A DNA stretch of 64,000 nt from Megaustenia siamemsis. Its lineage: Eukaryota > Mollusca > Gastropoda > Stylommatophora > Ariophantidae. The stretch covers positions 67,722,087-67,786,086 of the forward strand of contig JAVIAB010000073.1 of the NCBI GenBank assembly GCA_032433765.1, in the 5' to 3' direction. Under the pieces are notes generated by a model that was given only the letters and a program-made list of their open reading frames with translations, was not told the origin of the DNA and did not search any database. Positions within the stretch are counted from its first letter, which is position 1. Every line of letters begins with the position of its first letter. Positions 1,233 to 62,066 of the stretch are shown in pieces. The position numbers and the translations under genes are program-made.

Positions 1233-1240
1233 GTAAGTAC

Positions 1241-3050: not shown

Positions 3051-3052
3051 CT

Positions 3053-4935: not shown

Positions 4936-4984
4936 TTATTTTAAGATCCATAAAGGGGCATGCGTGGAATAACAATCGGTGGAT

Positions 4985-5765: not shown

Positions 5766-5934
5766 TATTATATACTTACTCATTACTAGATCAATATTTA
5801 CTAACAAAAGCTACAAATTGTATTCTATTAGAAAAAAAGTATTACTGGATAAAATCTAAATAAATGAATTCTTCTAAAAATGTATTGTAAGTATAAATTG
5901 CCTGGTTTATCATTATGATTGTAAAATAAAAAAC

Positions 5935-6350: not shown

Positions 6351-6633
6351 AAATTCTCATGCATGTTGAGACATCCAATGAAAGACTGATTCCAAAATCC
6401 TGCATTGGAATGGCTTAAAATAAGCAGTTTTACCAACCAAGCCAAACGAATTTGTAGACAAACACCAGACATACCAAGAGTTGTCAGCCTCCTACTGCCC
6501 ATACCAGAACTGACCCCTAATGATAATAATTAAACCACATCATTACAAAAACAGAATACAAACGAACACAACTGGAGTTTAAAGGAAGATAGATTTGACA
6601 CACTAGCAGGAAACATATTTTTAATCATCATCA

Positions 6634-22514: not shown

Positions 22515-24035
22515 AATGTAAAGTACAAATATTTATGTAAGTTACAGATATTTATGTAAAGTACAAATATTTATGTAAAGTACAAATATTTATGTAAGTT
22601 ACAGATATTTATGTAAAGTACAAATATTTATGTAAAGTACAAATATTTATGTAAGTTACAGATATTTATGTAAAGTACAAAAATTTATGTAAGTTACAGA
22701 TATTTATGTAAGTTACAGATATTTATGTAAAGTACAAATATTTATGTAAGTTACAGATATTTATGTAAAGTACAAATATTTATGTAAGTTACAGATATTT
22801 ATGTAAAGTACAAATATTTATGTAAGTTACAGATATTTATGTAAAGTACAAATATTTATGTAAAGTACAAATATTTATGTAAGTTACAGATATTTATGTA
22901 AAGTACAAATATTTATGTAAAGTACAAATATTTATGTAAGTTACAGATATTTATGTAAAGTACAAAAATTTATGTAAGTTACAGATATTTATGTAAGTTA
23001 CAGATATTTATGTAAAGTACAAATATTTATGTAAGTTACAGATATTTATGTAAAGTACAAATATTTATGTAAGTTACAGATATTTATGTAAAGTACAAAT
23101 ATTTATGTAAGTTACAGATATTTATGTAAAGTACAAATATTTATGTAAGTTACAGATATTTATGTAAGTTACAGATATTTATGTAAAGTACAAATATTTA
23201 TGTAAAGTACAAATATTTATGTAAGTTACAGATATTTATGTAAAGTACAAATATTTATGTAAAGTACAAATATTTATGTAAGTTACAGATATTTATGTAA
23301 AGTACAAAAATTTATGTAAGTTACAGATATTTATGTAAGTTACAGATATTTATGTAAAGTACAAATATTTATGTAAGTTACAGATATTTATGTAAAGTAC
23401 AAATATTTATGTAAGTTACAGATATTTATGTAAAGTACAAATATTTATGTAAGTTACAGATATTTATGTAAAGTACAAATATTTATGTAAGTTACAGATA
23501 TTTATGTAAGTTACAGATATTTATGTAAAGTACAAATATTTATGTAAAGTACAAATATTTATGTAAGTTACAGATATTTATGTAAAGTACAAATATTTAT
23601 GTAAGTTACAGATATTTATGTAAAGTACAAATATTTATGTAAGTTACAGATATTTATGTAAAGTACAAATATTTATGTAAGTTACAGATATTTATGTAAA
23701 GTACAAATATTTATGTAAGTTACAGATATTTATGTAAGTTACAGATATTTATGTAAGTTACAGATATTTATGTAAAGTACAAATATTTATGTAAAGTACA
23801 AATATTTATGTAAAGTACAAATATTTATGTAAGTTACAGATATTTATGTAAGTTACAGATATTTATGTAAAGTACAGATATTTATGTAAAGTACAAATAT
23901 TTATGTAAAGTACAGATATTTATGTAAAGTACAGATATTTATGTAAAGTACAGATATTTATGTAAAGTACAAATATTTATGTAAAGTACAGATATTTATT
24001 TAAAGTACAAATATTTATGTAAAGTACAAATATTA
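22515..24035. repeat. 19-bp satellite, about 80 units in two variants
   Basis: Two interleaved 19-bp variants: gtaaagtacaaatatttat and gtaagttacagatatttat. Their order repeats in longer blocks (for example 22660-22960 recurs at about 22960-23270 and 23280-23590), which shows higher-order structure near 310 bp. Both edges are sharp. The right edge abuts LINE X. Confidence 0.95.
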
Positions 24036-27802: not shown

Positions 27803-29129
27803 GGGAGGTCAAAAAGTAATGCACACCAATTTTTTTCTCGGAAACTATTCGGGCAAAATGTGTGAAATTTTCACAGATTGTAGCTGAACATCCCCTTCAC
27901 ACTACCTATTTTTCAACATAATCTCCGTCCAAGCGTATTGCCTTACGCCAACGCGAAACTAGGTCATGAATGCCTCGTTGTACCAAGTTTTGTCCTGCTC
28001 GCGTAGCCATTTTTTAACTGCACGGATCACATCCTCATCATTGTCAAAGTGTTTCCCACGCAGGAATTTTTTGAGTGGTCCAAACAGATGGAAATCTGAG
28101 GGAGCCAGATCAGGGCTGTAAGGAGGATGGGGCAGTACAGTCCAACCAAATTTGTTGATTGCTTCCCGTGTTACCAGACTTGTGTGAGGGCGTGCATTGT
28201 CATGTTGAAGCAACAAATCTGCAGATGGCTTATTAGGCCGAACTCTGTGGAACCGATTTTTGAGTTTTGTCAGTGTATTGATGTAAGCTGTCGAGTTGAT
28301 TGTCTCACCTCTTGTCATTACATCAACAAGAATCACACCATCAATGTCCCAGAAGACAGTGATCATCACCTTTCCGGCTGATGGAGATGTTTTGAATTTT
28401 TTTCTTTTGGTGACTGCGGATGATGCCATTCCATTGACTGCATTTTTGTTTCAGGCTCATAATAATGTGCCCATGTTTCGTCACCGGTAACAATTTTTGA
28501 CAAAAACATTTCTCCTTCAACACCGAAACGCTCCAACAATTCAGAACATAATGTTTTCCTTTGAACTCTGTGATCATTTGTTAGGCACCGAGGAACCCAT
28601 CGAGCGCAAATCTTTGAATATCCGAGAGTTTTAAAAATTGCGATTGCACTTCCCTTGCTGACTGTAAGCTGCAATGCCAATTGCTGACTAGTGATACGCC
28701 TATCCTTACGAATAATGGCATCAGCCGGTTTAACATGTCTGTGCTGGTAGCCGAGGCAACACGTCCAGAATGCGGTAAATCATGCAGCTCCACTCGTACA
28801 CTTTCTGCAGCTTTAATTCTCTGAACCCAGCGACTAACTGTGCTCCTATCGACTGCAGAACATTTGTACACTGCACACAGTCGTTTATGAATGTTTGCCA
28901 CAGTTTCTTTTTCCGCAACCAGAAATTCTATGACAATTCGCTGTTTGTAACGGACATTGTTGACAAGCTCCATTTTAACGGTTCATAGATTGCGTAATAT
29001 TTATCAGAATGCTGTGCAATTTGGTGCACATAATTGGAACATGTCATATTCCAAGTGTGCAAAATTTCATATTCCTATCTTTATTATTAGCCGAGAAAAA
29101 AATTGGTGTGCATTACTTTTTGACCTCCC
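27803..29129 (-). mobile_element. mariner-family DNA transposon, 1327 bp
   Basis: Bounded by perfect 39-bp terminal inverted repeats (27803-27841 and 29091-29129), each starting gggaggtcaaaaagtaatgc. The right end is followed by TA (29130-29131), as expected for the mariner target duplication. The left flank is AA, a mutated TA. Length is normal for the family. The transposase lies on the minus strand and is broken. The perfect termini suggest recent mobilisation, or mobilisation in trans. Confidence 0.93.
27959..28973 (-). pseudogene. mariner transposase, two frameshifts
   Basis: Would cut and paste the element at TA sites. Starts at 28973 (MELVNNVRYKQR). An N-terminal helix-turn-helix region spans 28600-28970 in two frames. 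The DDE-type catalytic core shows GDETW (near 28485), HDNARPHTS (near 28195) and YSPDLAPSDFHLF (near 28090). Exactly 34 residues separate the second and third catalytic aspartates, the D34D signature of mariner. One frame break lies near 28730; another lies near 28405 in an A-rich run. The final part to 27959 is intact, ending with the W..EQDKTWYNEAF block. Not functional as it stands. Confidence 0.93.
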
Positions 29130-39964: not shown

Positions 39965-40660
39965 TCAAGTGTAATGTCTTCTTCTTCTTCTCTCCATCCT
40001 CATTTGCCTTTCAGTTTCGGGGGGGGGGGGGGGGGTGTCATTTGAGGTCTTGTGCTCTTCTGTTCGCCACTGCTGCTGTTTCCTTGTGTTTCTAATATTT
40101 AATAAACCCATCTTTTCCGTGGTTGGCCTTTGTGTCTGGAGTTCACGCAAAATATGTTTTTTGAAGGTTCATTGTGTTGTGTTTTGAACTTTCTACCTTG
40201 TCATGTGGCCAAACCAGTTTATCTATTATTTCTTTATATATTATATGGGCGGGGAGGGCATATCCTAGGGTTTTTTTCCTTATGAATTCTTTATTTCTGA
40301 TCTTGTTTCTCGCGCTGTTTCTTGTCGTTCGTCTAACACATTTAATCTCAGTAGAGGTTATTTTTCTGATTATTCTTGCATCCAAGGTCCAGGACTGGTA
40401 TTGGTAGCACAACGTTGGGGTGAAGATTGTATTGTATAGTGCTCGTTTTGCCTCGAGTTATTTACTTGTTGATCAATAGTGGTGATAGCTGTCCAATGAT
40501 TTGGCTAGCTTTTTTTTGCATCTTGGATCTATTTCTGCTGTTTGTGAATTGTCGTTTGCCACTACACTTCCTAGGTATTAAAATTTCTCTACTTGTTTTA
40601 GTTGTCTGCCGTCTATAGTTATGGGGTGAAGTTCTGCTTCTCGTTTGCGATATTCATGAC
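39965..40660 (-). mobile_element. LINE family U, 3' half (target of the palindrome)
   Basis: Minus strand, from the insertion point: ANEKQNF, then (shifted frame) TIDGRQLKQVEKF (near 40580-40620), SWTLDARIIRKITSTEIKCV (near 40330-40390), PAHIIYKEIIDKLVWPHDKV (near 40195-40255), and a (GAA)n tail at 39977-39986. A G16 run interrupts it at 40020-40035. Its 5' half lies on the other side of the palindrome at 50243-50740. The two halves join in the same frame when the insertion and one TSD are removed. Confidence 0.78.
40655..40660. repeat. 6-bp target-site duplication, left
   Basis: catgac immediately before the palindrome, identical to 50237-50242. Confidence 0.85.
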
Positions 40661-40863
40661 AGTAGTATATATGGCTGTGACCCACCCCAAAAGTGCACGT
40701 GCATGCACCGAAAGACAATAGATTTGGCACCGACTTTGCACGAAACATGCACCAAAACCGTGCAAAAAAAAAAATTTTTTTTTTCTTTTCGAATTCGCTA
40801 TTTTTTCGAACTTCATTATTTTTTTGCGGGGACAAATTTTTTTTTTTTTTTTGGGGTTCGTCA

Positions 40864-41875
40864 GTTTGTCGAAACGGTCTACTGTGTCTGAGAGATTAAC
40901 GCAGGTAAATTCAAAGGAGACTCGGTGCTAATCGGCTTATAGAGCGGGGGTCGTCTCTCGCTGTGTGTTAGATGAAAATATTTGTGAAAGAGTATTTTAA
41001 AAGAGTATATGTGTGAAAGTAAAAATTCAGAATTATTTAAAAAATATGTATTTGTGAAAGTAAAAAACTCAGAATTATTAAAAATAAAAAATAAAAAATA
41101 AATAAAAACAATAAAAAGTCTCCCTTCAGGATTCGAACACGAGGTACTGTACGTGACAGGAGGCGACATGTAAAAAAAATGCTGACAAGCAATGACGTTG
41201 AAGGTTAGTTTGTCGAACGGTGTACTGTGTCTGAGAGATTAACGCAGGTAAATTCAAAGGAGACTCGGTGCTAATCGGCTTATAGAGCGGGGGTCGTCTC
41301 TCGCTGTGTGTTAGATGAAAATATTTTGTGAAAGAGTATTTTAAAAGAGTATATTTGTGAAAGTAAAAATTCAGAATTATTTAAAAAATATGTATTTGTG
41401 AAAGTAAAAAAAACTCAGAATTATTAAAAATAAAAAATAAATAAAAACAATAAAAAGTCTCCCTTCAGGATTCGAACACGAGGTACTGTACGTGACAGGA
41501 GGCGACATGTAAAAAAATGCTGACAAGCAATGACGTTGAAGGTTAGTTTGTCGAACGGTGTACTGTGTCTGAGAGATTAACGCAGGTAAATTCAAAAGAG
41601 ACTCGGTGCTAATCGGCTTATAGAGCGGGGGTCGTCTCTCGCTGTGTGTTAGATGAAAATATTTGTGAAAGAGTATTTTAAAAGAGTATATGTGTGAAAG
41701 TAAAATTCAGAATTATTTAAAAAATATGTATTTGTGAAAGTAAAAAACTCAGAATTATTAAAATAAAAATAAATAAAAACAATAAAAAGTCTCCCTTCAG
41801 GATTCGAACACGAGGTACTGTACGTGACAGGAGGCGACATGTAAAAAAAATGCTGACAAGCAATGACGTTGAAGG
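40864..41875. repeat. three ~340-bp tandem units, left arm
   Basis: Units at 40864-41207, 41208-41545 and 41546-41875, each from gtttgtcgaa to gcaatgacgttgaagg. On the minus strand every unit carries a tRNA-type B box (gtgttcgaatcct) followed about 12 bases later by a T5 run, a Pol III-style arrangement. No A box was found at the expected distance. Confidence 0.9.
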
Positions 41876-42256
41876 GGTATTGTTACGAAAAGAAAAATAC
41901 GACTAGCTCGCGGGCGGGAATGAGTTGGTTGACACAGGTGTGTTATTGTAGTATCGCTAACATCATGTGTCGTGTAGTAAGGTGTGCTAATATTAAATAG
42001 TGACGCTCGCTCTTTCTCATTCAATGTAAGCAAAACAAAATTCTATATTTCACAATTGTATTAATACATCATATAGTATCGCTAACATCATGTGTCGTGT
42101 AGTAAGGTGTGCTAATATTTAATAGTGACGCTCGCTCTTTCTCATTCAATGTAAAGCAAAACAAAATTCTATATTTCACAATTTTATTAATACATCATAT
42201 ATATATATATATATATTACTGTCCGGATGCTGATAATTTTAAACCGTCTGGGTTTC

Positions 42257-42505
42257 CTACACAACCGCCCTCCATTTTGACAAAACCTTGATCAAAGCTG
42301 GAATAGGTAATCGGTGACTTTGCTGAACATCCTGGGCATCCACACTGGCTGCCGGAGCTGTCGTCTGATTAACAAGAGTGAGGTCCCCTTGGTTAACAAA
42401 AAAAGGGCGTGTAGTTGATGTTAGCATAAGCGTTTTCAAGACTGCCTTAACGCCATGTGCCACCCTCAACACCATCATCATCCCTTCATGGCCTATCATC
42501 AGCAT
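42257..42505 (-). pseudogene. internally deleted capsid-protease relic, left arm module 1
   Basis: The minus strand carries the short capsid-relic block KTLMLTSTTRPF (near 42410-42450). After a few dozen novel residues it passes directly to the segment that follows the protease relic in module 2 (RLPIPALIKVLSKWR, near 42262-42310). Everything between, including nearly all recognisable capsid and protease text, is missing. It is thus a deletion form of 43374-43962. Confidence 0.7.
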
Positions 42506-42930
42506 GTGCCACCCTCAACACCATCATCCCTTCATGTCCTATCATCATCATGTGCCACCCTCAACACTAGCATCATGTGCATCAACACTATCATCATGTG
42601 CCACCCTCATCATCAACCTTCATATCATCATCTTGTGCCTCAACATCACCCTTCATGTCCTATCATCATCATGTGCCACCCTCAACACCATCATCCCTTC
42701 ATGTCCTATCATCATCATGTGCCACCCTCAACACTAGCATCATGTGCCTCAACACTATCATCATGTGCCTCAACACTATATTCATCTGCCTCAACACTAG
42801 CATCATGTGCCTCAACACTATCATCATGTGCCACCCTCATCATCAACCTTCATATCATCATCATGTGCCTCAACACTATCCCTTCCAACACCACCATCAA
42901 CCCTTCATGTCCTATCATCATCATCATACC
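42450..42930. repeat. CAT/ATG-rich low-complexity block, left module 1
   Basis: Irregular repetition of catgtgccaccctcaacacc with catcat runs. It gives His/Ser/Pro-rich open frames that are not genes. Inverted counterpart at 48000-48460. Confidence 0.85.
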
Positions 42931-43373
42931 ACACAAAGTTTCAAACCGATTATTATTCACCGGCGGTGGGCATGTGAGGTGGAGGGGCGGGTAATAGGCA
43001 ACAGGAGGCGGCATGTAAAAAAAATGCTGTCAAGCAATGACGTTGAAGGGGTATTGTTAGGAAAAGGATTAGATAAATACGACTAGCTCGCGGGCGGGAA
43101 CGAGTTCGTCGGCACAGGTGTGTTATTGTAGTATCGCTAACATCATGTGCCAGGATAGCGGCTCTTGAGGAAAGATTATTGGTCGTGGGTGTTATCGCTA
43201 CCAACATCATCATGTGTCGTGTAGTAAGGTGTGCTAATATTAAATAGTGACGCTCGCTCTTTCTCATTCAATGTAAAGCAAAACAAAATTCTATATTTCA
43301 CAATTTTATTAATACATCATATATATATATATATTACTGTCCGGATGCTGATAATTTTAACCGTCTGGGTTTC

Positions 43374-43607
43374 CTACACAACCGCCCTCCATTTTGACAA
43401 AACCTTGATCAAAGCTGGAATAGGTAATCGGTGACTCTGCTGAAACATTCCGGGTTCGTGGGCAGGGTCGGTGTTTATGACAAAGGCCGCGGTCGCCGTT
43501 GGGTCGATGCTCGGCGGTAAGTGGTTTCGTGGAATGACACTATCAAGGGAACAACGTCGAACGAAAATATCCGACATCAAAAGGTTGTAAATCTCCCTCG
43601 TGTTCAT
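43374..43607 (-). pseudogene. adenovirus-type cysteine protease, N-terminal fragment (left arm)
   Basis: An open frame of 77 codons starting at an ATG about 23 bp after the capsid relic stop. The first ~56 residues (MNTREIYNLLMSDIFVRR, then a short linker, then AAFVINTDPAHEPG) fit the N-terminal region of the maturation proteases of Polintons and adenoviruses, up to just before the catalytic His. The catalytic His, Asp/Glu and Cys are absent: after the Pro-Gly the frame continues with unrelated residues (RLPIPALIKVLSKWR). The family call is by recognition of pattern only. Enzymatically it would be dead. Confidence 0.58.
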
Positions 43608-43629
43608 ATTCTTCTTCTTTTTTTCTCTC

Positions 43630-43962
43630 TCAAACGGCGAAGTCTGTTAGAATCTGCCTTGTCTTGGACACCTCGAGCACCGAGTCCAACTCGGCGTAGA
43701 CGATAACTTGTAGGGGAGTAGTGGTGGGAGCCGCAAACTTGAGTTCTATCGACAAGGGTCCGCTTGTGGCTAGCTCAAAATGGGAGCAGTCCAGTAGGCT
43801 GGACGAGAGGTCAAAACCAAATAACCTGATCTGTCGTCTGATTAACAAGAGTGAGGTTCCCTTGGTTAACAAAAAGGGGCGTGTAGTTGAGGTTAGCATA
43901 AGCGTTTTCGAGACTGCCTTAACGCCATCTTTAGACAATGGAACTACCCCCTCTGCATTCAT
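43630..43962 (-). pseudogene. Polinton-like jelly-roll capsid protein, C-terminal fragment (left arm)
   Basis: About 110 codons in one open frame with a natural stop at about 43630. Residues ~45-110 (IRLFGFDLSSSLLDCSHFEL, GPLSIELKFAAP, PLQVIVYAELDSVLEVSK) have the alternating strand pattern and the final VIVYAEx(D/N)SVLEV-type block found at the end of the Polinton major capsid-like proteins. The N-terminal four fifths of such a protein are missing; upstream is CAT-rich simple sequence. The following gene is the protease relic, a compact virus-like spacing. Assignment is from pattern, not from a search. Confidence 0.58.
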
Positions 43963-44159
43963 GTCCTATCATCATCATGTGCCACCCTCAACAACATCAT
44001 CAACCCTTCATGCCTATCATCATCATCATCATGTGCCACCCTCAACACCATCATCAACCTTCATGTCCTATCATCATCATCATCATGTGCCACCCTCAAC
44101 TCCATCATCAGCCCTTCAGGTCCTATCATCAAACCACACAAAGTATCAACCAGCGAAAT

Positions 44160-44191
<32 letters not shown>

Positions 44192-44195
44192 ACAT
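43950..44195. repeat. CAT-rich block plus (CT)n, left module 2
   Basis: CAT-rich repeats at 43950-44140, then a (CT)n run at about 44159-44190. They replace the missing upstream part of the capsid relic. Inverted counterpart at 46737-46990. Confidence 0.85.
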
Positions 44196-44376
44196 TCATG
44201 GTAAACCAAAACAAAATAAATCACTAAGATTTTTACCACCATAACACACAAATTTAGGGTCATATTAAAAAAAAGTCAACCTTAAAACCATACAAATCTA
44301 CTCCCATACTCATAAAGTTAGACACATCAAACAGATAATTACTTCCAAACTCCAAAAAGTTAGACCAAATCACGCC

Positions 44377-44705
44377 TCGATCGTTCTTTAACATTGCCTC
44401 CAGCGTTCTGTAACATTGCCTCGATCGTTCTTTAACATTACCTCGAGCGTTCTCTAACATTGCCTCGATCGTTCTTTAACATTGCCTCCAGCGTTCTCTA
44501 ACATTGCCTCGATCGTTCTATAACATTGCCTTCAGCGTTCTGTAACATTGCCTCGATCGTTCTTTAACATTACCTCGAGCGTTCTCTAACATTGCCTCGA
44601 TCGTTCTTTAACATTGCCTCCAGCGTTCTCTAACATTGCCTCGATCGTTCTTTAACATTGCCTCCAGCGTTCTCTAACATTCCCTTGCTCGTTCTCTAAC
44701 ATTTT
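44377..44705. repeat. 22-bp alternating minisatellite, left arm
   Basis: Two 22-bp forms alternate: gcctcgatcgttctttaaca(tt) and gcctccagcgttctctaaca(tt). Read on the minus strand, the right edge merges into LINE-like text (TKKATQRLQLMKML near 44700-44750), so the array may have grown from LINE sequence. Confidence 0.88.
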
Positions 44706-45029
44706 CATTAGTTGGAGTCTTTGTGTTGCCTTCTTAGTGAGATTCTCTACGTGTTTCTTCAGGCTCAATTGTCAGTCTAGTTGTATTCCTAAAAATCTAC
44801 TTCCATACTGATACTAGTTAGACACATCGATCAGATAGTTACATCCAAATCGCAAACATTTTACCCCAGAACACAAAAATTTAGGGTCATACTCAAAAAG
44901 TCGACCTAAAAATCCCAAAAAGCTACTCACATAGTCATACTAGTTAGACACAACGAGCAGGAAGTTATATTCAAGGTCCAAAATGTTGGACTTTTTCGTG
45001 GTCGACAGTTGGGTCTGGTGTTCTCACAA

Positions 45030-45215
45030 CATTTTGCTGAAGGCTCGTTGTGTTTTTGATCTGTCTGCCCTGTCACCTAGCCAAACTATTTTATCTGTTG
45101 TTTCCTTATATATTCTATGATGGGGCTATTCCTAGCTTTCTTCTCAGTTCTTCATTTCTGAGCTTATCTCTCAGACTGTTTCATGTCATTCGTCTAACAC
45201 ATTTCATCTCTGAGA
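45030..45215 (-). mobile_element. LINE U scrap inside the left arm
   Basis: On the minus strand it has the same text as 40184-40350 of the target LINE (blocks gtcattcgtctaacacattt and ttatctgttgtttccttata on the + strand). The element therefore carries a piece of the same LINE family into which it inserted. Confidence 0.7.
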
Positions 45216-45388
45216 TCACAAAAATTTAGGCACATACTCAAAAAGTCGACCTCAAAACCATAAAAAGCTACTCCCACATTCATCTAAAAGTTACACCAAA
45301 ACCGCACCAGATTTGCAACGTGCAAAAACATGCACAAGTTTGACACGCGAACCAGTTTGGCACGCGAACCAGTTTGGCACAATGCACC

Positions 45389-45477
45389 TTCGTAAGGGTG
45401 TAACAATCAACATTCGTAAGGGCGTAACAATCATAAAAGTGATTATCAAAGTAATTTTTGGTATGGGGATGTCTATT
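45389..45477. other. palindrome spacer (89 bp)
   Basis: The only single-copy part of the element. It contains two direct copies of ttcgtaagggYgtaacaatca (about 45389-45409 and 45413-45432). No coding motif. A loop of this size would cap a 4.7-kb hairpin. Confidence 0.8.
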
Positions 45478-45659
45478 GGTGCATTGTGCCAAACTGGTTC
45501 GCGTGCCAAACTGGTTCGCGTGCCAAACTGGTTCGCGTGTCAAACTTGTGCATGTTTTTGCACGTTGCAAATCTGGTGCGGTTTTGGTGTAACTTTTAGA
45601 TGAATGTGGGAGTAGCTTTTATGGTTTTGAGGTCGACTTTTTGAGTATGTGCCTAATTT

Positions 45660-45880
45660 TTGTGATCTCAGAGATGAAATGTGTTAGACGAATGACATGA
45701 ACAGTCTGAGAGATAAGCTCAGAAATGAAGAACTGATAAGAAAGCTAGGAATAGCCCCCATCATAGAATATATAAGGAAACAACAGATAAAATAGTTTGG
45801 CTAGGTGACAGGGCAGACAGATCAAAAAACACAACGAGCCTTCAGCAAAATGTGTGAGAACACCAGACCAACCTGTCGAC
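45660..45880 (+). mobile_element. LINE U scrap inside the right arm
   Basis: Inverted counterpart of 45030-45215. Confidence 0.7.
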
Positions 45881-46185
45881 CACGAAAAAGTCCAACATTT
45901 TGGACCTTGAATATAACTTCCTGCTCGTTGTGTCTAACTAGTATGACTATGTGAGTAGCTTTTTGGGATTTTTAGGTCGACTTTTTTGAGTATGACCCTA
46001 AATTTTTGTGTTCTGGGTAAAATGTTTGCGATTTGGATTGTAACTGTCTGATCGATGTGTCTAACTAGTATCAGTATGGAAGTGATTTTTAGGAATACAA
46101 CTAGACTGACAATTGAGCCTGAAGAAACACGTAGAGAATCTCACTAAGAAGGAAACACAAGACTCCAACTAATGAAAATGTTAGA

Positions 46186-46560
46186 GAACGAGCAAGGGAA
46201 TGTTAGAGAACGCTGGAGCAATGTTAAAGAACGATCGAGGCAATGTTAGAGAACGCTCGAGGTAATGTTAAAGAACGATCGAGACATGTTAGAGAACGCT
46301 GGAGGCAATGTTAAAGAACGATCGAGGCAATGTTAGAGAACGCTCGAGGTAATGTTAAAGAACGATCGAGGCAATGTTTACAGAACGCTGGAGGCAATGT
46401 TTATAGAACGATCGAGGCAATGTTAGAGAAGCTGGAGGCATGTTAAAGAACGATAGAGGCAATGTTAGAGAACGCTCGAGGTAATGTTAAAGAACGATCG
46501 AGGCAATGTTACAGAACGCTGGAGGCAATGTTAAAGAACGATCGAAGGCGTGAACGTGAT
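46186..46560. repeat. 22-bp alternating minisatellite, right arm
   Basis: Inverted counterpart of 44377-44705, with about two more units and several single-base losses. Confidence 0.88.
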
Positions 46561-46731
46561 TTGGTCTAACTTTTTGGAGTTTGGAGTAATTATCTGTTTG
46601 ATGTGTCTAACTTTTATGAGTATGGGAGTAGATTTGTATGGTTTTAAGGTCGACTTTTTTTAAATATGACCCTAAATTTGTGTTTCTGGTGGTAAAAATC
46701 TAGTGATTTATTTGTTTTGGTTTACCATGAA

Positions 46732-46736
<5 letters not shown>

Positions 46737-46781
<45 letters not shown>

Positions 46782-46990
46782 TCGCTGGTTGATACTTTGT
46801 GTGGTTTGATGATAGGACCTGAAGGGCTGATGATGGAGTTGAGGGTGGCACATGATGATGATGATGATGATAGGACAGAAGGGTTTGATGATGGTGTTGA
46901 GGGTGGCACATGATGATGATGATGATAGGCCATGAAGGGTTGATGATGTTGTTGAGGGTGGCACATGATGATGATAGGACATGAAGGCAG
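46737..46990. repeat. (GA)n plus ATG-rich block, right module 2
   Basis: (GA)n at 46737-46778 followed by ATG-rich units to 46990. Inverted counterpart of 43950-44195. Confidence 0.85.
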
Positions 46991-47041
46991 AGGGGTAGTT
47001 CCATTGTCTAAGATGGCGTTAAGGCAGTCTCGAAAACGCTT

Positions 47042-47314
47042 ATGCTAACCTCAACTACACGCCCCTTTTTGTTAACCAAGGGGACCTCACTCTTGTTAAT
47101 CAGACGACAGATCCGGTTATTTGGTTTTGACCTCTCGTCCAGCCTACTGGACTGCTCCCATTTTGAGCTAGCCACAAGCGGACCCTTGTCGATAGAACTC
47201 AGTTTGCGGCTCCACCCTACTCCCCTACAAGTTATCGTCGGTGCTCGAGGTGTCCAAGACAAGGCAGATTCTAACAGACTTCGCCGTTTGAGAGAGAAAA
47301 AAAGAAGAATATGA
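47042..47314 (+). pseudogene. Polinton-like capsid C-terminal fragment (right arm), frameshifted
   Basis: Inverted copy of 43630-43962. It reads correctly through GPLSIEL (near 47190-47210), then goes out of frame because of small indels near 47205-47220 and a 17-bp deletion near 47240. Confidence 0.58.
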
Positions 47315-47583
47315 ACACGAGGGAGATTTACAACCTTTTGATGACGGATATTTTCGTTCGACGTTGTTCCCTTGATAGTGTCATTCCACGAAACCACTTA
47401 CCGCCGAGCATCGACCCAACGGCGACCGCGGCCTTTGTCATAAACACCGACCCTGCCCACGAACCCGGAATGTTTCAGCAGAGTTACCGATTACCTATTC
47501 CAGCTTTGATCAAGGTTTTGTCAAAATGGAGGCGGTTGTGTAGGAAACCCAGACGGTTAAAATTATCAGCATCCGGACAGTAA
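47311..47583 (+). pseudogene. adenovirus-type protease N-terminal fragment (right arm)
   Basis: Inverted copy of 43374-43607 with a Ser to Thr change (LLMTDIF) and a His to Tyr change after the conserved part. It starts at 47311 and is cut off before the catalytic His in the same place as the left arm. Confidence 0.58.
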
Positions 47584-47999
47584 TATATATATATATGATG
47601 TATTAATAAAATTGTGAATATATAATTTTGTTTTGCTTTACTTGAATGAGAAGAGCGAGCGTCACTATTAATATTAGCACACCTTACTACACGACACATG
47701 ATGATGTTGGTAGCGATAACACCCACGACCAATAATCTTTCCTCAAGAGCCGCTATCCTGGCACATGATGTTAGCGATACTACAATAACACACCTGTGCC
47801 GACGAACTCGTTCCCGCCCGCGAGCTAGTCGTATTTATCTAATCCTTTTCCTAACAATACCCCTTCAACGTCATTGCTTGTCAGCATTTTTTTTACATGT
47901 CGCCTCCTTTTGCCTATTACCCGCCCCTCCACCTCACATGCCTACCGCCGGTGAATAATAATCGGTTTGAAACTTTGTGTGGTATGATGATGATGATAG

Positions 48000-48460
48000 G
48001 ACATGAAGGGTTGATGGTGGTGTTGGAAAGGGATAGTGTTGAGGCACATGATGATGATATGAAGGTTATGATGAGGGTGGCACATGATGATAGTGTTGAG
48101 GCACATGATGCTAGTGTTGAGGCAGATGATGATAGTGTTGAGGCAGATGATGATAGTGTTGAGGCACATGATGATAGTGTTGAGGCACATGATGCTAGTG
48201 TTGAGGGTGGCACATGATGATGATAGGACATGAAGGGATGATGTGTTGAGGTGGCACATGATGATGATAGGACATGAAGGGTGATGTTGAGGCACAAGAT
48301 GATGATATGAAGGTTGATGATGAGGGTGGCACATGATGATAGTGTTGAGGGTGGCACATGATGATGATAGGACATGAAGGGATGATGGTGTTGAGGGGTG
48401 CACATGCTGATGATAGGCCATGAGGGATGATGATGGTGTTGAGGGTGGCACATGGCGTTA
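48000..48460. repeat. ATG-rich low-complexity block, right module 1
   Basis: Inverted counterpart of 42450-42930, with units such as gtgttgaggcacatgatgat. Confidence 0.85.
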
Positions 48461-48640
48461 AGGCAGTCTCGAAAACGCTTATCATCAACTACTCGCCTTT
48501 TTTTGTTAACCAAGGGACCTCACTCTTGTTAATCAGACGACAGCTCCGGCAGCCAGTGTGGATGCCCAGGATGTTTCAGCAAAGTCACCTATTCCAGCTT
48601 TGATCAAGGTTTTGTCAAATGGAGGGCGGTTGTGTAGGAA
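48430..48640 (+). pseudogene. internally deleted capsid-protease relic, right arm module 1
   Basis: Inverted counterpart of 42257-42505, with further small indels that break the frame. Confidence 0.65.
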
Positions 48641-49012
48641 CCCAGATGGTTAAAATTATCAGCATCCGGATCCGACAGTATATATATATATAATGATGTA
48701 TTAATAAATTGTGAAATATGAATTTTGTTTGCTTTACATTGAATGAGAAAGAGCGAGCGTCACTATTTAATATTAGCACACCTTACTACACGACACATGA
48801 TGTTAGCGATACTATATGATGTATTAATACAATTGTGAAATATAGAATTTTGTTTTGCTTTACATTGAATGAGAAAGAGCGAGCGTCACTATTTAATATT
48901 AGCACACCTTACTACACGACACATGATGTTAGCGATACTACAATACACACCTGTGTCAACCAACTCGTTCCGCCCGCGAGCTAGTCGTATTTTTCTTTTC
49001 GTAACAATACCC

Positions 49013-50036
49013 TTCAACGTCATTGCTTGTCAGCATTTTTTTTACATGTCGCCTCCTGTCACGTACAGTACCTCGTGTTCGAATCCTGAAGGGAGACTTT
49101 TTTTGTTTTTATTTATTTTTTTATTTTTAATAATTCTGAGTTTTTTTACTTTCACAAATACATATTTTTTTTATAATTCTGAATTTTTACTTTCACACAT
49201 ATACTCTTTTAAAATACTCTTTCACAAATATTTTCATCTAACACACAGCGAGGACGACCCCCGCTCTATAAGCGATTAGCACCGAGTCTCTTTTGAATTT
49301 ACCTGCGTTAATCTCTCAGACACAGTACACCGTTCGCAAACTAACTTCAACGTCATTGCTTGTCAGCATTTTTTTTTTACATGTCGCCTCCTGTCACGTA
49401 CAGTACCTCGTGTTCGAATCCTGAAGGGAGACTTTTTATTGTTTTTATTTATTTTTATTTTTTATTTTTTAATAATTCTGATTTTTTTTTACTTTCACAA
49501 ATACATATTTTTTAAATAATTCTGAATTTTTACTTTCACAAATATACTCTTTTAAAACATGTACTCTTTCACAAAATATTTTCATCTAACACACAGCGAG
49601 AGACGACCCCCGCTCTATAAGCCGATTAGCACCGAGTCTCCTTTGAATTTACCTGCGTTAATCTCTCAGACACAGTACACCGTTCGACAAACTAACCTTC
49701 AACGTCATTGCTTGTCAGCATTTTTTTTACATGTCGCCTCCTGTCACGTACAGTACCTCGTGTTCGAATCCTGAAGGGAGACTTTTTATTGTTTTTATTT
49801 ATTTTTTTATTTTTTATTTTTAATAATTCTGAGTTTTTTACTTCACAAATACATATTTTTTAAATAATTCTGAATTTTTACTTTCACACATATACTCTTT
49901 TAAAATACTCTTTCACAAATATTTTCATCTAACACACAGCGAGAGACGACCCCGCTCTATAAGCCGATTAGCACCGAGTCTCCTTTGAATTTACCTGCGT
50001 TAATCTCTCAGACACAGTAGACCGTTTCGACAAACT
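49013..50036. repeat. three ~340-bp tandem units, right arm
   Basis: Inverted counterpart of 40864-41875, with units at about 49013-49343, 49344-49695 and 49696-50036. B boxes are on the plus strand near 49075, 49410 and 49760. Confidence 0.9.
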
Positions 50037-50236
50037 GACTCCCCAAAAAAAAAAATATTTCCCCCCCCCCAAAAAAAATAATGAAGTTCGAAAAAATAGC
50101 GAATTCGAAAAAAAAAATTTTTTTTTTTTTGCACGGTTTTGGTGCATGTTTCGTGCAAAGTTGGTGCCAAATCTATTGTCTTTCGGTGCATGCACGTGCA
50201 CTTTGGGGTGGGTTCACAGCCATATATACTACTACT

Positions 50237-50242
50237 CATGAC
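50237..50242. repeat. 6-bp target-site duplication, right
   Basis: catgac immediately after the palindrome, identical to 40655-40660. Confidence 0.85.
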
Positions 50243-55246: not shown

Positions 55247-56356
55247 TTTCAACGCCTTCATCTTCTCACACTCCACATGGCACAACTTGTGATGTAATAC
55301 AATGCTAAACAAATCACATGCCTCCTTCAACTTCTCACACTCCACATGACACAACTTGTGATGTAATACAATGCTAAACAAATCACATGCCTCCTTCAAC
55401 CTCTCACACTCCACATGACACAACTTGTGATGTAATACAATGCTAAACAAATCACATGCCTCCTTCAACCTCTCACACTCCACATGACACAACTTGTGAT
55501 GTAATACAATGCTAAACAAATCACATGCCTCCTTCAACCTCTCACACTCCACATGACACAACTTGTGATGTAATACAATGCTAAACAAATCACATGCCTC
55601 CTTCAACTTCTCACACTCCACATGACACAACTTGTGATGTAATACAATGCTAAACAAATCACATGCCTCCTTCAACTTCTCACACTCCACATGACACAAC
55701 TTGTGATGTAATACAATGCTAAACAAATCACATGCCTCCTTCAACCTCTCACACTCCACATGACACAACTTGTGATGTAATACAATGCTAAACAAATCAC
55801 ATGCCTCCTTCAACCTCTCACACTCCACATGACACAACTTGTGATGTAATACAATGCTAAACAAATCACATGCCTCCTTCAACCTCTCACACTCCACATG
55901 ACACACTTGTGATGTAATACAATGCTAACAAATCACATGCCTCCTTCAACTTCTCACACTCCACATGACACAACTTGTGATGTAATACAATGCTAAACAA
56001 ATCACATGCCTCCTTCAACTTCTCACACTCCACATGACACAACTTGTGATGTATACAATGCTAACAAATCACATGCCTCCTTCAACTCTCACACTCCACA
56101 TGACACAACTTGTGATGTAATACAATGCTAAACAAATCACATGCCTCCTTTAACCTCTCACACTCCACGTGACACAACTTGTGATGTAATACAATGCTAA
56201 ACAAATCACATGCCACCTTCAACCTCTCACACTCCACATGACACAACTTGTGATGTAATACAATGCTAAACAAATCACATGCCTCCTTCAACCTCTCACA
56301 CTCCACATGACACAACTTGTGATATAATACAATGCTAAACAAATCACATGCCTCCT
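55247..56356. repeat. 69-bp satellite, about 16 units
   Basis: Unit of 69 bp starting cacatgcctccttcaacctc. On the minus strand it encodes a 23-residue repeat (RLKEACDLFSIVLHHKL, then CHVECE) that stays open for 251 codons (55151-55906), as 69 is a multiple of three. Single-base losses at about 55905, 55929, 56053 and 56086 break the frame in the right third, which argues against selection on a protein. The edges are partial units. Confidence 0.95.
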
Positions 56357-56577: not shown

Positions 56578-57580
56578 GTAACTCAACCATCGCTTCCCAG
56601 TATTGATATTGGAACTCAACCATTGTCTATCATTTCCCCGGCATTGATATTGGAACTCAAACCATTATCCATCATTTCCCCGGCATTGATGTTGGAACTC
56701 AAACCATTATCCATCATTTCCCCGGCATTGATATTGGTACTCAAACCATTATCCATCATTTCCCCGGCATTGATGTTGGAACTCAACCATTATCCATCAT
56801 TTCCCCGGCATTGATGTTGGAACTCAAACCATTGTCTATCATTTCCCCGTCATTGATATTGGAACTCAAACCATTATCCATCATTTCCCCGTCTTTGATA
56901 TTGGAACTCAAACCATTATCCATCATTTCCCCGGAATTGATATTGGAACTCAAACCATTATCCATTATTTCCCCGGCATTGATATTGGAACTTAACCATT
57001 ATCCATCATTTCCCCGGCATTGATGTTGGAACTCAAACCATTATCCATCATTTCCTCGGTATTGATATTGGAACTCAAACCATTATCCATCATTTCCCCG
57101 GCATTGATGTTGGAACTCAAACCATTATCCATCATTCCCCGGCATTGTTATGGAACTCAAACCATTATCCATCATTTCTTCGGCACTGATATTGGAAATC
57201 AAACCATTATCCATCATTTCTTCGGCACTGATATTGGAACTCAAACCATTATCCATCTTTCTTCGGCACTGATATTGGAACTCAACCATTGTCTATCATT
57301 TCCCCGGCATTGATGTTGGAACTCAAACCATTATCCATCATTTCCCGGCATTGTTATTGGAACTCAACCATTATCCATCATTTCTTCGGCACTGATGTTG
57401 GAACTCAAACCTTATCCATCATTTCCCCGGCATTGATATTGGAACTTAAACCATTATCCATCATTTCCCCGGCATTGATGTTGGAACTCAAACCATTATC
57501 CATCATTTCCCGGCATTGATGTTGGAACTTAAACCATTATCCATCATTTCCCCGGCACTGATATTGGAACTCAAACCATT

Positions 57581-57840
57581 AAAGGTAAAGTAAAGTACGA
57601 GACTTGAACCGGCGTCTTAACACGCGAGTTTACACCCATATGTGCTCGCCGCCTATCCAGAATGTTCGGAGATTTCTGGATAGTGTCGCTTCAAGCATCG
57701 AAACTCAGATGCGAGGCGACATTCCTCACCTTCTCAGGGTAGTACCCTGGTACCCATTTTTGCCAACGGCTGGGTCGACCGTGGGGGGTATTTGTTTTTT
57801 CCAAACACGAGTACAATTAACACTGCTTCCAGCGGGAATC
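57581..57840 (-). mobile_element. SINE gamma, head-deleted copy 1 in the 42-bp satellite
   Basis: A 260-bp insert entering at ...aaaccatt|aaaggtaaagtaaagtac and leaving at ccagcgggaatc|atcatttccc. Compared with 61268-61597 it lacks the tRNA head. Confidence 0.85.
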
Positions 57841-59421
57841 ATCATTTCCCCGTCATTGATATTGGAACTCAAAACATTATCCATCATTTCCCGGCATTGA
57901 TATTGGAAATCAAACCATTATCTATCATTTCTCCAGTATTGATATTGGAACTCAAACCATTATTCATCATTTCTCCAATATTGATATTGGAACTCAAACC
58001 ATTATCCATCATTTCCCCGGCATTGATATTGGAACTCAAACCATTATCCATCATTTCCCCGTCTTTGATATTGGAACTCAAACCATTATCAATCATTTCC
58101 CCGTCATTGATATTGGAACTCAAACCACTGTCTATCATTTCCCCGGCATTGATGTTGGAACTCAAACCATTGTCTATCATTTCCCCGGCATTGATATTGG
58201 AACTCAAACCATTATCCATCATTTCCCCGGCATTGATGTTGGAACTCAAACCATTATCCATCATTTCCCCGGCATTGATGTTGGAACTCAAACCATTATC
58301 CATCATTTCCCCGGCATTGATATTGGAACTTAAACCATTATCCATCATTTCCCCGGCATTGATATTGGAACTCAAACCATTGTCTATCATTTCCCCGGCA
58401 TTGATATTGGAACTCAAACCATTATCCATCATTTCCCCGGCATTGATATTGGAACTCAAACCATATCCATCATTTCCCGGCATTGATGTTGGAACTCAAA
58501 CCATTATCCATCATTTCCCCGGCATTGATATTGGAACTTAAACCATTATCCATCATTTCCCCGCATTGATATTGGAACTCAAACCATTGTCTATCATTTC
58601 CCGGCATTGGTATTGGAACTCAAACCATTATCCATCATTTCCCCGGCATTGATGTTGGAACTCAAACCATTATCCATCATTTCCCCGGCATTGATATGGT
58701 ACTCAAATCATTATCCATCATTTCCCGGCATTGATGTTGGAACTCAAACCATTATCCATCATTTCCCCGGCATTGATGTTGGAACTCAAACCATTGTCTA
58801 TCATTTCCCCGTCATTGATATTGGAACTCAAACCATTATCCATCATTTCCCCGTCTTTGATTTTGGAACTCAAACCATTATCCATCATTTCCCCGGAATT
58901 GATATTGGAACTCAACCATTATCCATTATTTCCCCGGCATTGATATTGGAACTTAAACCATTATCCATCATTTCCCCGGCATTGATGTTGGAACTCAAAC
59001 CATTATCCATCATTTCCCCGGCATTGTTATTGGAACTCAAACCATTATCCATCATTTCTTCGGCACTGATATTGGAAATCAAACCATTATCCATCATTTC
59101 TTCGGCACTGATATTGGAACTCAAACCATTATCCATCATTTCTTCGGCACTGATATTGGAACTCAAACCATTGTCTATCATTTCCCCGGCATTGATGTTG
59201 GAACTCAAACCATTATCCATCATTTCCCCGGCATTGTTATTGGAACTCAAACCATTATCCATCATTTCTTCGGCACTGATGTTGGAACTCAAACCATTAT
59301 CCATCATTTCCCGGCATTGTTATTGGAATTAAATCCATTATCCATCATTTCTTCGGCCTGATATTGGAACTCAACCATTATCCATCATTTCTTCGGCACT
59401 GATATTGGAACTCAAACCATT

Positions 59422-59681
59422 AAAGGTAAAGTATAGTACGAGACTTGAACCGGCGTCTTAACACGCGAGTTTACACCCATATGTGCTCGGCCGCCTATCC
59501 AGAAATGTTCGGAGATTTCTGGATAGTGTCGCTTCAAGCATCGAAACTCAGATGCGAGGCGACATTCCTCACCTTCCCAGGGTAGTACCTGGTACCCATT
59601 TTTGCCACGGCTGGGTCGACCGTGGGGGTATTTTTTTTTTTCCAAACACGAGTACAATTAACACTGCTTCCAGCGGGAATC
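59422..59681 (-). mobile_element. SINE gamma, head-deleted copy 2 in the 42-bp satellite
   Basis: Same junctions as copy 1 on both sides, 1841 bp away. It is therefore a duplicate of it and not a new insertion. Confidence 0.85.
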
Positions 59682-61267
59682 ATCATTTCCCCGTCATTGA
59701 TATTGGAACTCAAACATTATCCATCATTTCCCCGGCATTGATATTGGAACTCAAACCATTATCTATCATTTCTCCGTATTGATATTGGAACTCAAACCAT
59801 TATTCATCATTTCTCCAATATTGATATTGGAACTCAAACCATTATCCATCATTTCCCCGGCATTGATATTGGAACTCAAACCATTATCCATCATTTCCCC
59901 GTCTTTGATATTGGAACTCAAACCATTATCCATCATTTCCCCGTCATTGATATTGGAACTCAAACCACTGTCCATCATTTCCCCGGCATTGATGTTAGAA
60001 CTCAAACCATTGTCTATCATTTCCCCGGCATTGATATTGGAACTCAAACCATTATCCATCATTTCCCCGGCATTGATGTTGGAACTCAAACCATTATCCA
60101 TCATTTCCCCGGCATTGATATTGGAACTTAAACCATTATCCATAATTTCCCCGGCATTGATATTGGAACTCAAACATTGTCTATCATTTCCCCGTCATTG
60201 ATATTGGAACTCAAACCATTATCCATCATTTCCCGTCTTTGATATTGGAACTCAAACCATTATCCATCATTTTCCCGGAATTGATATTGGAACTCAAACC
60301 ATTATCCATTATTTCCCCGGCATTGATATTGGAACTTAAACCATTATCCATCATTTCCCCGGCATTGATGTTGGAACTCAAACCATTATCCATCATTTCC
60401 TCGGTATTGATATTGGAACTCAAACCATTATCCATCATTTCACCGGCATTGATGTTGGAACTCAAACCATTATCCATCATTTCCCCGGCATTGTTATTGG
60501 AACTCAAACCATTATCCATCATTTCTTCGGCACTGATATTGGAAAATCAAACCATTATCCATCATTTCTTCGGCACTGATATGGAACTCAAACCATTATC
60601 CATCATTTCTTCGGCACTGATATTGGAACTCAAACCATTGTCTATCATTTCCCCGTCATTGATATTGGAACTCAAACCATTATCCATCATTTCCCCGTCT
60701 TTGATATTGGAACTCAAACCATTATCCATCATTTCCCCGGAATTGATATTGGAACTCAAACCATTATCCATTATTTCCCCGGCATTGATATTGGAACTTA
60801 AACCATTATCCATCATTCCCCGGCATTGATGTTGGAACTCAAACCATTATCCATCATTTCCTCGGTATTGATATTGGAACTCAAACCATTATCCATCATT
60901 TCACCGGCATTGTTATTGGAACTCAAACCATTATCCATCATTTCTTCGGCACTGATATTGGAAATCAAACCATTATCCATCATTTCTTCGGCACTGATAT
61001 TGGAACTCAAACCATTATCCATCATTTCCCGGCACTGATATTGGAACTCAAACCATTGTCTATCATTTCCCCGGCATTGATGTTGGAACTCAAACCATTA
61101 TCCATCATTTCTTCGGCACTGATGTTGGAACTCAAACCATTATCCATCATTTCCCCGGCATTGTTATTGGAATTCAAACCATTATCCATCATTTCTTCGG
61201 CACTGATATTGGAACTCAAACCATTATCCATCATTTCTTCGGCACTGATATTGGAACTCAAACCATT

Positions 61268-61597
61268 AAAGGTAAAGTAAAGTACGAGACTTGAACCGGC
61301 GTCTTAACACGCGAGTTTACACCCATATGTGCTCGGCCGCCTATCCAGAAATGTTCGGAGATTTCTGGATAGTGTCGCTTCAAGCATCGAAACTCAGATG
61401 CGAGGCGACATTCCTCACCTTCTCAGGGTAGTACCCTGGTACCCATTTTTGCAACGGCTGGGTCGACCGTGGGGGGTATTTTTTTTTTCCAAACACGAGT
61501 ACAATTAACACTGCTTCCAGCGGGAATCGAATACGGGTTGTCCGAACAACGGTAGTCCAGTCGAGTGGTTTTCCCCAACTAGGCTAACGAGGCCCCT
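61268..61597 (-). mobile_element. SINE gamma, full copy with tRNA head
   Basis: Same left junction as the other two, 1846 bp further on. The right side continues past the gaatc where the others stop and adds ~75 bp that on the minus strand form a tRNA-like head: A box tagcctagttggg (near 61576-61588) and B box tattcgattccc (near 61524-61535). Confidence 0.85.
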
Positions 61598-62066
61598 CAA
61601 ACCATAATCCATCATTTCCCCGTCATTGCTATTGGAACTCAAAACATTATCCATCATTTCCCCGGCATTGATATTGGAAATCAAACCATTATCCATCATT
61701 TCCCCGTCATTGATATTGGAAATCAAACCATTATCTATCATTTCTCCAGTATTGATATTGGAACTCAAACCATTATCCATCATTTCTCCAGTATTGATAT
61801 TGGAACTCAAACCATTATCCATCATTTCCCCGGCATTGATATTGGAACTCTTAACCATTATCCATCATTTCATCGACATTGATATTGGAACTCAAACCAT
61901 TATCCATCATTTCCCCGGCATTGATATTGGAACACTTAACCATTATCCATTATTTCTCCATTATTGATATTGGAACTCAAACCCTTATTCATCATTTTCC
62001 CGCCATTGATATTGGAACTCAAACCATTATCCATCATTTCTCTATTATTGATATTGGAACTCAACA

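What the first reader, a model, noticed from the sequence alone, without database searches (positions are those of the whole stretch)
40661..50236. A 9.6-kb whole-element palindrome integrated with an exact 6-bp target duplication
Both arms (4728 and 4759 bp) are inverted copies around an 89-bp spacer. catgac flanks the element on both sides, and the LINE it sits in reads through once the element and one duplication are removed (INQTEVM joins ANEKQNF on the minus strand). Normal Polintons have TIRs of hundreds of bases around a unique 15-20 kb body. Here the whole element is inverted repeat. The likely explanation is a snap-back genome, as known for defective forms of protein-primed viruses, integrated by a Polinton-type integrase acting in trans. 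I do not know of a described class of palindromic Polinton derivatives.
Basis: partly seen in the sequence, partly recalled or inferred. Interest (0 to 1): 0.92.

Follow-up and report, generated by a model that had tools for sequence, protein, structure and literature searches.

The report
Mirror-image Polinton transposon family
This is a jumping element related to a family of virus-like transposons, but nearly its whole length is one sequence followed by its own mirror image, and the same genome holds more such mirror-image copies, one of which can be traced base by base to the end of an ordinary gene-carrying copy turned back on itself.

Summary
The element is Polinton/Maverick-derived: both arms carry the junction of a Polinton capsid gene (C-terminus) and an adenovirus-type protease gene (N-terminus), found by profiles built from relatives only. 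Its tip occurs at 265 places in its own 2.6-Gb genome. Of 15 copies read with both tips, 14 have exact 6-bp duplications and 8 are at least 80% palindromic; ordinary same-tip copies carry Polinton genes. One palindrome, L059, is one end of a gene-carrying copy turned back on itself at a junction found once in the genome. The window's centre recurs in 4 of 7 other palindromes and in 10 of 10 further centres read, so this palindrome is inherited, not a fresh snap-back. Arms resemble each other more than arms of other subgroups (0.4% against a median 13%), though close copies mix. Fold-back replication is the best mechanism; end-joining of two fragments is not excluded. Four literature searches listed no such elements.

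The parts
40655..40660 (.). target-site duplication CATGAC, left copy
40661..45388 (+). left arm of the palindrome
40661..40768 (+). left tip; begins AGTAGTATATATGG (two AGT units); family tip found at 265 places in the genome at up to 3 mismatches
40863..41875 (+). three tandem copies of a 338-bp unit, left arm
43449..43607 (-). N-terminal fragment of an adenovirus-type (Polinton) cysteine protease gene, transcribed towards the tip
   Evidence: E 6.7e-8
43639..43941 (-). C-terminal fragment of a Polinton capsid gene, directly upstream of the protease fragment; best matched stretch 43642-43824
   Evidence: E 1.4e-15
44374..44703 (+). 22/44-bp minisatellite, left arm (copy number differs from its mirror 46177-46545)
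44991..45210 (-). fragment of a LINE 3' region captured in the arm (73% to the flanking LINE)
45389..45477 (.). 89-bp spacer at the centre; homologous centre in other palindromes
45478..50236 (-). right arm of the palindrome
45671..45890 (+). mirror of the captured LINE fragment (71%)
47012..47311 (+). mirror copy of the capsid fragment, frame disturbed
   Evidence: E 5.4e-4
47314..47472 (+). mirror copy of the protease fragment
   Evidence: E 1.0e-7
49011..50036 (-). mirror of the 338-bp tandem units
50129..50236 (-). right tip; read inward it begins AGTAGTAGTATATATGG (three AGT units)
50237..50242 (.). target-site duplication CATGAC, right copy

Best explanation
The element is a non-autonomous, wholly palindromic derivative of a Polinton. 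SHOWN: it carries Polinton gene fragments in both arms; its arm begins like one end of a gene-carrying Polinton (L057: tip, repeat, truncated protease, capsid end); the family shares one tip and 6-bp duplications; another palindrome (L059) has an inversion junction that turns one parent end back on itself and occurs once in the genome; palindromes sharing the window's centre exist at other sites; in the 15 centre-sharing elements compared, the two arms of a copy always belong to the same subgroup of the lineage. INFERRED: a linear, protein-primed Polinton molecule stalled or broke, its strand folded back and was copied to its own end, giving a molecule with two identical functional ends; the integrase of helper Polintons inserted it with a 6-bp duplication. 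The palindromic molecule can be mobilised again, and passage through a hairpin form (one arm copied or repaired against the other) keeps arms equal over the life of a lineage; after insertion they decay separately.
For: Gene fragments in native order: profiles from relatives only give E 1.4e-15 and 6.7e-8 over 1129 window ORFs; next hits outside the element 0.4 and 0.67. The capsid match does not depend on the motif used to find the relatives (E 5e-15 in L033). 14 of 15 both-tip copies have exact 6-bp duplications, 15 of 15 AGTAGT at both ends (window). ORFs of L057/L070/L059: rve (7.8e-13), chromo, Peptidase_C5 (5e-4), A32/IVa2/FtsK-type ATPase (about 6e-4 to 3e-3), 491-aa capsid ORFs. L057 1-1584 matches window arm 1-3163 in patches of 89-97%, its right end in patches of 71-88%. 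L059 = rc L070 8887-5226 joined to L070 4327-8887; L070 and L057 run unbroken through both breakpoints; the junction pattern hits the genome once. Centre boundaries at 0-1 mismatch in the window and 14 copies chosen for sharing it; in these 15 both arms lie in the same subclade, median difference 0.43% within against 12.8% between elements. In 70 of 82 windows along eight palindromes the own arm is closer than the median other copy.
Against: L059's junction shows no microhomology, so joining of two broken molecules fits as well. No PolB among 24 of the 39 ORFs (110 aa or more) of L057, L070 and L059, so protein-primed replication of this family is inferred from the class. Arms are strict sisters in only 5 of 15 elements; the own arm is the closest of all in 3, ties with another element's in 7 and is beaten in 5, the window among them. 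Along eight palindromes the own arm beats the closest other copy in 49 of 82 windows, ties in 7, loses in 26; in the window element it wins 5, ties 1, loses 8. Large gaps in one arm remain in L053, L054, L056, L061 and L074.
Confidence: 0.7

Rival explanations
1. Foldback/Galileo-like growth of terminal repeats: ordinary TIRs were lengthened stepwise in the chromosome by gene conversion and unequal exchange until almost nothing unique was left.
For: Galileo shows recruitment of internal sequence into TIRs and internal tandem repeats, up to about 1.26 kb, in non-autonomous copies (PMC3573991, passages). The window arms hold tandem repeats of differing copy number. L070 and L075 have inverted repeats of about 0.9 kb. 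TIRs of hundreds to thousands of bases are reported for Polinton-like viruses (PMC12220804, passages).
Against: L059's arms of 3.7 kb end at one sharp junction and its 895-bp centre is single-copy parent sequence contiguous with one arm, as a single event gives. Inverted repeats are about 0.1-1.0 kb in the six non-palindromic copies and 1.8-4.6 kb of aligned arm in the eight palindromic ones (biased sample).
Confidence: 0.2
2. Inverted dimer by end-joining: two broken copies of the same Polinton end were ligated inner end to inner end as extrachromosomal molecules, then integrated through their two intact tips.
For: Blunt L059 junction without shared bases; unequal break positions in the two halves give the single-copy centre.
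Against: Does not by itself explain why both arms of each copy of the shared-centre lineage stay in one subgroup while subgroups diverge by about 13%; needs two breaks of the same end.
Confidence: 0.25
3. Arms are equalised only after insertion by chromosomal gene conversion between arms, or the lineage is simply a few recent bursts from master palindromes whose arms happened to be equal.
For: Would give much of the same contrast; near-identical copies whose arms mix fit recent bursts.
Against: Gaps of 0.25-0.75 kb (2.4 kb in L053) in one arm only remain uncorrected in 5 copies. Bursts alone do not explain equal arms in three subclades that share a centre.
Confidence: 0.3
4. Assembly artefact (missed adapter or folded read).
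For: Arms of the window copy differ mainly by one-base indels, as raw-read errors would.
Against: The inverted repeat ends at the duplication with different flanks; seven other elements with other flanks are also at least 80% palindromic; minisatellite copy numbers differ between arms.
Confidence: 0.03

Closest known systems
Polinton/Maverick (polintoviruses)
   Same: 6-bp duplications, terminal inverted repeats with reiterated ends, capsid-protease gene pair in conserved order; same-tip copies with rve integrase, packaging-type ATPase, protease and capsid genes
   Different: Known ones are 15-20 kb transposons with a set of conserved genes (PMC4028283, abstract and passages); here nearly the whole element is inverted repeat, 9.6 kb, no intact gene
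Polinton-like viruses with long TIRs
   Same: inverted repeats of hundreds to thousands of bases and 5-6 bp duplications (PMC12220804, passages)
   Different: those are 14-40 kb elements that encode capsid and other proteins between the repeats
Foldback / Galileo elements
   Same: long, internally repetitive inverted repeats with little or no unique middle, non-autonomous
   Different: 7-bp duplications and P-type transposase for Galileo, TIRs up to about 1.26 kb (PMC3573991, passages); no capsid or protease genes that I know of
Snap-back genomes of adeno-associated virus
   Same: self-complementary defective genomes
   Different: a parvovirus, free particles (PMC8235507, start of abstract in the listing)
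ODIRA-type inverted fragments in yeast
   Same: linear inverted molecules made by a template switch at a fork
   Different: chromosomal origin, native telomere ends, integration by homologous recombination (PMC10766183, abstract)
IS3EU/GingerRoot
   Same: 6-bp duplications
   Different: TA..TA, occasionally TG..CA termini (PMC10045372, passages); here AGT..ACT

Membership tests
Polinton/Maverick | 6-bp target-site duplication | tested here: met
   14 of 15 both-tip copies exact, L053 one mismatch (window); 6 bp for Polinton in PMC10045372 (passage)
Polinton/Maverick | capsid and adenovirus-type protease genes | tested here: met
   fragments in both window arms; long ORFs in L057 and L059, split ones in L070
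Polinton/Maverick | rve integrase | tested here: met
   only in same-tip relatives: 2 of 24 ORFs of L057/L070/L059 (members not named by the tool); none found in six arm ORFs of the window element
Polinton/Maverick | protein-primed PolB | tested here: not met
   no ORF above 200 aa in the window element; none among 24 of 39 ORFs of L057, L070, L059. Longer tip pairs of about 13 kb were not read and a genome search for PF03175 did not complete, so this is filed as a non-autonomous derivative, not a complete Polinton
Polinton/Maverick | unique body between TIRs, 15-20 kb | tested here: not met
   95% of the window element is paired and identical; 9576 bp
Polinton/Maverick | reiterated bases at the ends, as in protein-primed genomes | tested here: met
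   AGTAGT at both ends of 15 of 15 copies; reiterations in TP genomes, PMC4974454 (passages)
Galileo/Foldback | 7- to 9-bp duplication | tested here: not met
   6 bp in 14 of 15; 7 bp for Galileo, 9 bp for Foldback recalled
Galileo/Foldback | long internally repetitive inverted repeats | tested here: met
IS3EU/GingerRoot | TA..TA termini | tested here: not met
   termini AGT..ACT
Snap-back (fold-back) molecule | both arms from one parental end, single-copy loop contiguous with one arm | tested here: met
   L059 against L070/L057. For the window only the arm's likeness to one L057 end was seen; its own parent junction was not
Snap-back (fold-back) molecule | intrastrand origin | not testable with these tools
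   junction has no microhomology; sequence cannot separate it from joining of two molecules

The most novel reading that the evidence does not exclude
Palindromic Polintons are a stable mode of life: self-complementary satellites of gene-carrying Polintons that replicate through a hairpin, re-equalise their arms and are integrated by helper integrase, a germline fossil record of defective genomes of a protein-primed virus. Such palindromes have arisen more than once in this genome (the window's lineage and L059).
Probability: 0.4. Interest if true: 0.9.

Novelty: new variant of a known kind. Interest (0 to 1): 0.82.

Why it matters
The free, linear, protein-primed stage of Polintons is, as far as I know, inferred from their genes. 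Whole-element palindromes with a base-resolved fold-back junction record such a stage in the chromosome and let it be studied by comparing copies. They also show a way in which a virus-like transposon makes non-autonomous derivatives other than by internal deletion and, in L059, doubles long capsid and protease ORFs in mirror image.

Tried and rejected
Pfam, NCBIfam and PDB searches with the short gene fragments alone gave nothing. AlphaFold models of the two fragments were poor (mean pLDDT 34.6 and 64.6), so no fold search was run. The fragments had no relatives in viral contigs. The stricter motif found nothing in viral contigs or genome contigs; the looser one gave 7 and 36 loci, most of them chance hits by eye. 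Of these 43 I used six for the capsid alignment (L023, L026, L032, L033, L037, L039) and five for the protease alignment (L023, L026, L032, L033, L037); L002, L007, L027, L039 and L042 also look like such proteases by eye but were left out of the latter. The genome contigs records are filed under bacteria; I take them to be eukaryotic or viral contaminants, untested. The capsid profile itself finds nothing in the PDB, and Pfam's double-jelly-roll domain matches 1 of 7 members at only 0.028; 'capsid' rests on the gene order and on my recall of Polinton proteins. The tip does not recur significantly at the centre (20 and 58 of 500 shuffles reach the score). A greedy count of paired bases under-counted L054, L061 and L074 and was replaced by direct arm alignment for nine elements, with centres that I set. 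An earlier count said 11 both-tip copies in the first 20 stretches; the right number is 10. Rfam and tRNA searches of the window found nothing. Searches for the unbroken parent sequence and for PolB in the genome did not complete.
Full report
OBSERVATION. The window holds a 9576-bp element at 40661-50236 that is one inverted repeat around an 89-bp spacer, flanked by CATGAC on both sides. Arms are 4728 and 4759 bp. Over 4599 aligned positions there are 35 mismatches (21 clean) and 94 indel events; 57 are clean single-base indels, 40 of them bases missing in the right arm. The arms of L059 and L060 show 5 and 11 gap openings, so I read the excess here as local consensus error. Minisatellite copy numbers differ between arms, so the arms are two separate sequences. 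The LINE reads through in one frame across the repaired site.

WHAT THE ARMS CARRY. The arms are mostly non-coding repeats: three 338-bp units, minisatellites, duplicated blocks and a captured LINE fragment 71-73% identical to the LINE outside. On the strand read towards each tip lie two short coding remnants, which by eye looked like a Polinton protease start and a capsid end. A motif scan of prokaryotic genome contigs gave 36 loci, a few of which are Polinton-like. The capsid remnant, which played no part in the scan, matches L033 at E 5e-15 and L026 at 2e-9, and in L033 and L023 capsid and protease lie next to each other as in the window. In ten ORFs of L023, L026 and L037 Pfam finds rve in L026 (with a chromodomain) and, below its curated cut-offs, rve in L037 and PolB, A32 and IVa2 in L023. 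Profiles from these relatives alone, run over all 1129 window ORFs of 30 aa or more, pick the left-arm remnants (1.4e-15 and 6.7e-8) and their right-arm mirrors (5.4e-4 and 1.0e-7); the next hits are at 0.4 and 0.67. The protease alignment matches Pfam Peptidase_C5 in 4 of 7 members (best 6e-6) and, as a profile, solved adenain (5.8e-6) and the S273R protease (3.4e-10). The capsid alignment has no such outside support.

THE FAMILY. When the genome search answered, the window was placed in an unnamed 2.59-Gb assembly of 155 contigs. The tip AGTATATATGGCTGTGAACCCACCCC occurs 133 + 132 times at up to 3 mismatches, the window's included, the reversed control 0 + 0; the first 100 places were listed. 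I fetched 20 stretches chosen by closeness to the window's tip, and 4 short tip pairs. Ten of the 20 and 4 of the 4 hold a tip pair more than 300 bp apart; with the window that makes 15 elements of 2.2-9.6 kb. All have AGTAGT at both ends. Fourteen have exact 6-bp duplications of 13 different sequences (CACATT occurs twice); L053 has one mismatch. Of nine elements aligned arm to arm, eight are at least 80% palindromic in identical paired bases: window 95, L056 91, L060 91, L054 89, L059 88, L061 83, L062 80, L074 80%; L053 51%. L052, L057, L070, L072, L073 and L075 are not (inverted repeats of about 0.1-1.0 kb). The sample is biased towards the window's lineage.

PARENTS. L057 and L070 (8.8-8.9 kb) are ordinary in layout. 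I gave Pfam 24 of the 39 ORFs of 110 aa or more of L057, L070 and L059: rve and chromodomain in 2 each (7.8e-13, 1.1e-6), Peptidase_C5 in 2 (5e-4), A32, IVa2 and FtsK in 2 (6e-4 to 3e-3), PC4 in 1 (4.5e-7), no PolB; the tool gives tallies, not members. The capsid profile finds a 491-aa ORF in L057 (E 4e-127), split ORFs in L070 and, in mirror image, two of 491 aa in L059; two 169-aa protease ORFs also lie in mirror image in L059. L057's left end 1-1584 matches the window's arm 1-3163 in the same direction in patches of 89-97%, with blocks duplicated in the window; the innermost patch, 975 bp at 96.6%, holds the truncated protease and the capsid end. L057's right end matches only in patches of 71-88%. 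The window's arms therefore look like one parental end.

A RESOLVED FOLD-BACK. L059 positions 3738-8328 run along L070 4327-8887; positions 1-3737 are the reverse complement of L070 5226-8887. L070 and L057 both run unbroken through 5226 and through 4327, so the junction in L059 is derived. No bases are shared at the joint. The centre of about 895 bp is single-copy parent sequence, 98.1% identical. The junction occurs once in the genome at up to 3 mismatches, at L059 itself, so this event is separate from the window's lineage. A strand that started at the right end, stopped at 4327, turned and went on from 5226 back to the end gives exactly this; so does ligation of two broken right ends.

INHERITED PALINDROMES. 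The window's centre is not private. L054, L056, L061 and L074 have a homologous spacer and both boundaries. A pattern for the centre finds 18 places, the window's included; I fetched 10 others, and all 10 are palindromic around it over 0.4-1.3 kb, L083 with an interruption near the centre. Spacers are 89-141 bp through copies of a short repeat. L052 shares the centre on one side only and looks like a deletion product. L060 and L053 look centre-deleted; L062's centre holds 542 bp that are 98.9% identical to L070. Among the copies read, only L052 has the centre outside a palindrome.

ARE ARMS KEPT EQUAL? In the innermost 480 bp of 15 centre-sharing elements the two arms of one element differ by a median 0.43% (0.0-2.7) and arms of different elements by a median 12.8%. 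The tree has three subclades, and both arms of every element lie in the same one (read from the tree). Against a simple reading: strict sisters are 5 of 15 (label shuffles mean 0.43, maximum 3); the own arm is closer than any other element's in 3, ties in 7 and is beaten in 5, the window among them. In 300-bp windows along eight palindromes the own arm beats the closest other copy in 49 of 82 windows, ties in 7 and loses in 26, and beats the median other copy in 70 of 82; in the window element alone it wins 5, ties 1 and loses 8 against the closest (6 windows not comparable). Had the arms evolved apart since a common palindrome, left and right arms would form two old groups. They do not, so arms have been equalised between the split of the subclades and the recent bursts, or the fold-back has recurred at one hairpin. 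One-arm gaps of 0.07-2.4 kb persist in five copies, which fits separate decay after insertion.

MECHANISM. Protein-primed genomes have reiterated ends; adenovirus has GTAGTA and initiates by jumping back (PMC4974454, passages). The ends here are AGTAGT, in the window's right end AGTAGTAGT, and 6 bp is the Polinton duplication length (PMC10045372, passage). The simplest chain is: linear Polinton DNA, fold-back copying of one end, integration by helper integrase, re-mobilisation as a palindrome with hairpin-mediated equalisation of arms. The turn-back in L059 and the 6-bp integration rest on sequence; the polymerase, the hairpin stage and helper action are inference.

NOVELTY. Literature searches for Polinton with palindrom and TIR (17 papers, all listed), Polinton with non-autonomous terms (33, 20 listed), polintovirus/adintovirus/Maverick with palindrom or foldback (247, 25 listed), and protein-primed palindromes (27, 10 listed) listed no title on palindromic Polintons; I read titles and abstract starts, and passages of the papers named above. 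The library holds open-licence papers only; the original Polinton descriptions were not seen. Long palindromes formed by intrastrand annealing in Streptomyces linear replicons are recalled, not found here.

Noticed in passing
L059:1531-2037 and 2041-3513 with mirrors 5837-7309 and 7313-7819: A palindromic element carrying two mirror-image copies of a 491-aa capsid ORF and a 169-aa protease ORF, arms 99.5% identical.
   Followed up: partly
L057: Left 1.2 kb resembles the window's lineage and carries only the protease N-terminus, while the rest matches L070: looks like a chimera of the non-coding and the gene-carrying lineages.
   Followed up: partly
L062, centre (element positions 2860-4212): A 542-bp piece 98.9% identical to gene-carrying L070 sits in the centre of a palindrome.
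   Followed up: partly
L064:9702-9843, L065:9763-9903, L069:9341-9526: Tip pairs only about 0.1-0.2 kb apart inside longer inverted repeats: possible miniature relatives or tips embedded in other repeats.
   Followed up: no
window 44991-45210 and 45671-45890: LINE 3' fragment inside both arms, from a family related to the LINE into which the element inserted.
   Followed up: partly
window 22516-24034, 55255-56356, 56587-62064: Long tandem arrays in the same window.
   Followed up: no
window 27959-28450 (-): Mariner-type transposase fragment (Pfam Transposase_1, E 1.5e-14).
   Followed up: no
L033 and L023 (and other loci): Polinton-like gene pairs on contigs filed under bacterial genomes, one of them from a tubeworm endosymbiont bin: probable host contamination.
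   Followed up: no
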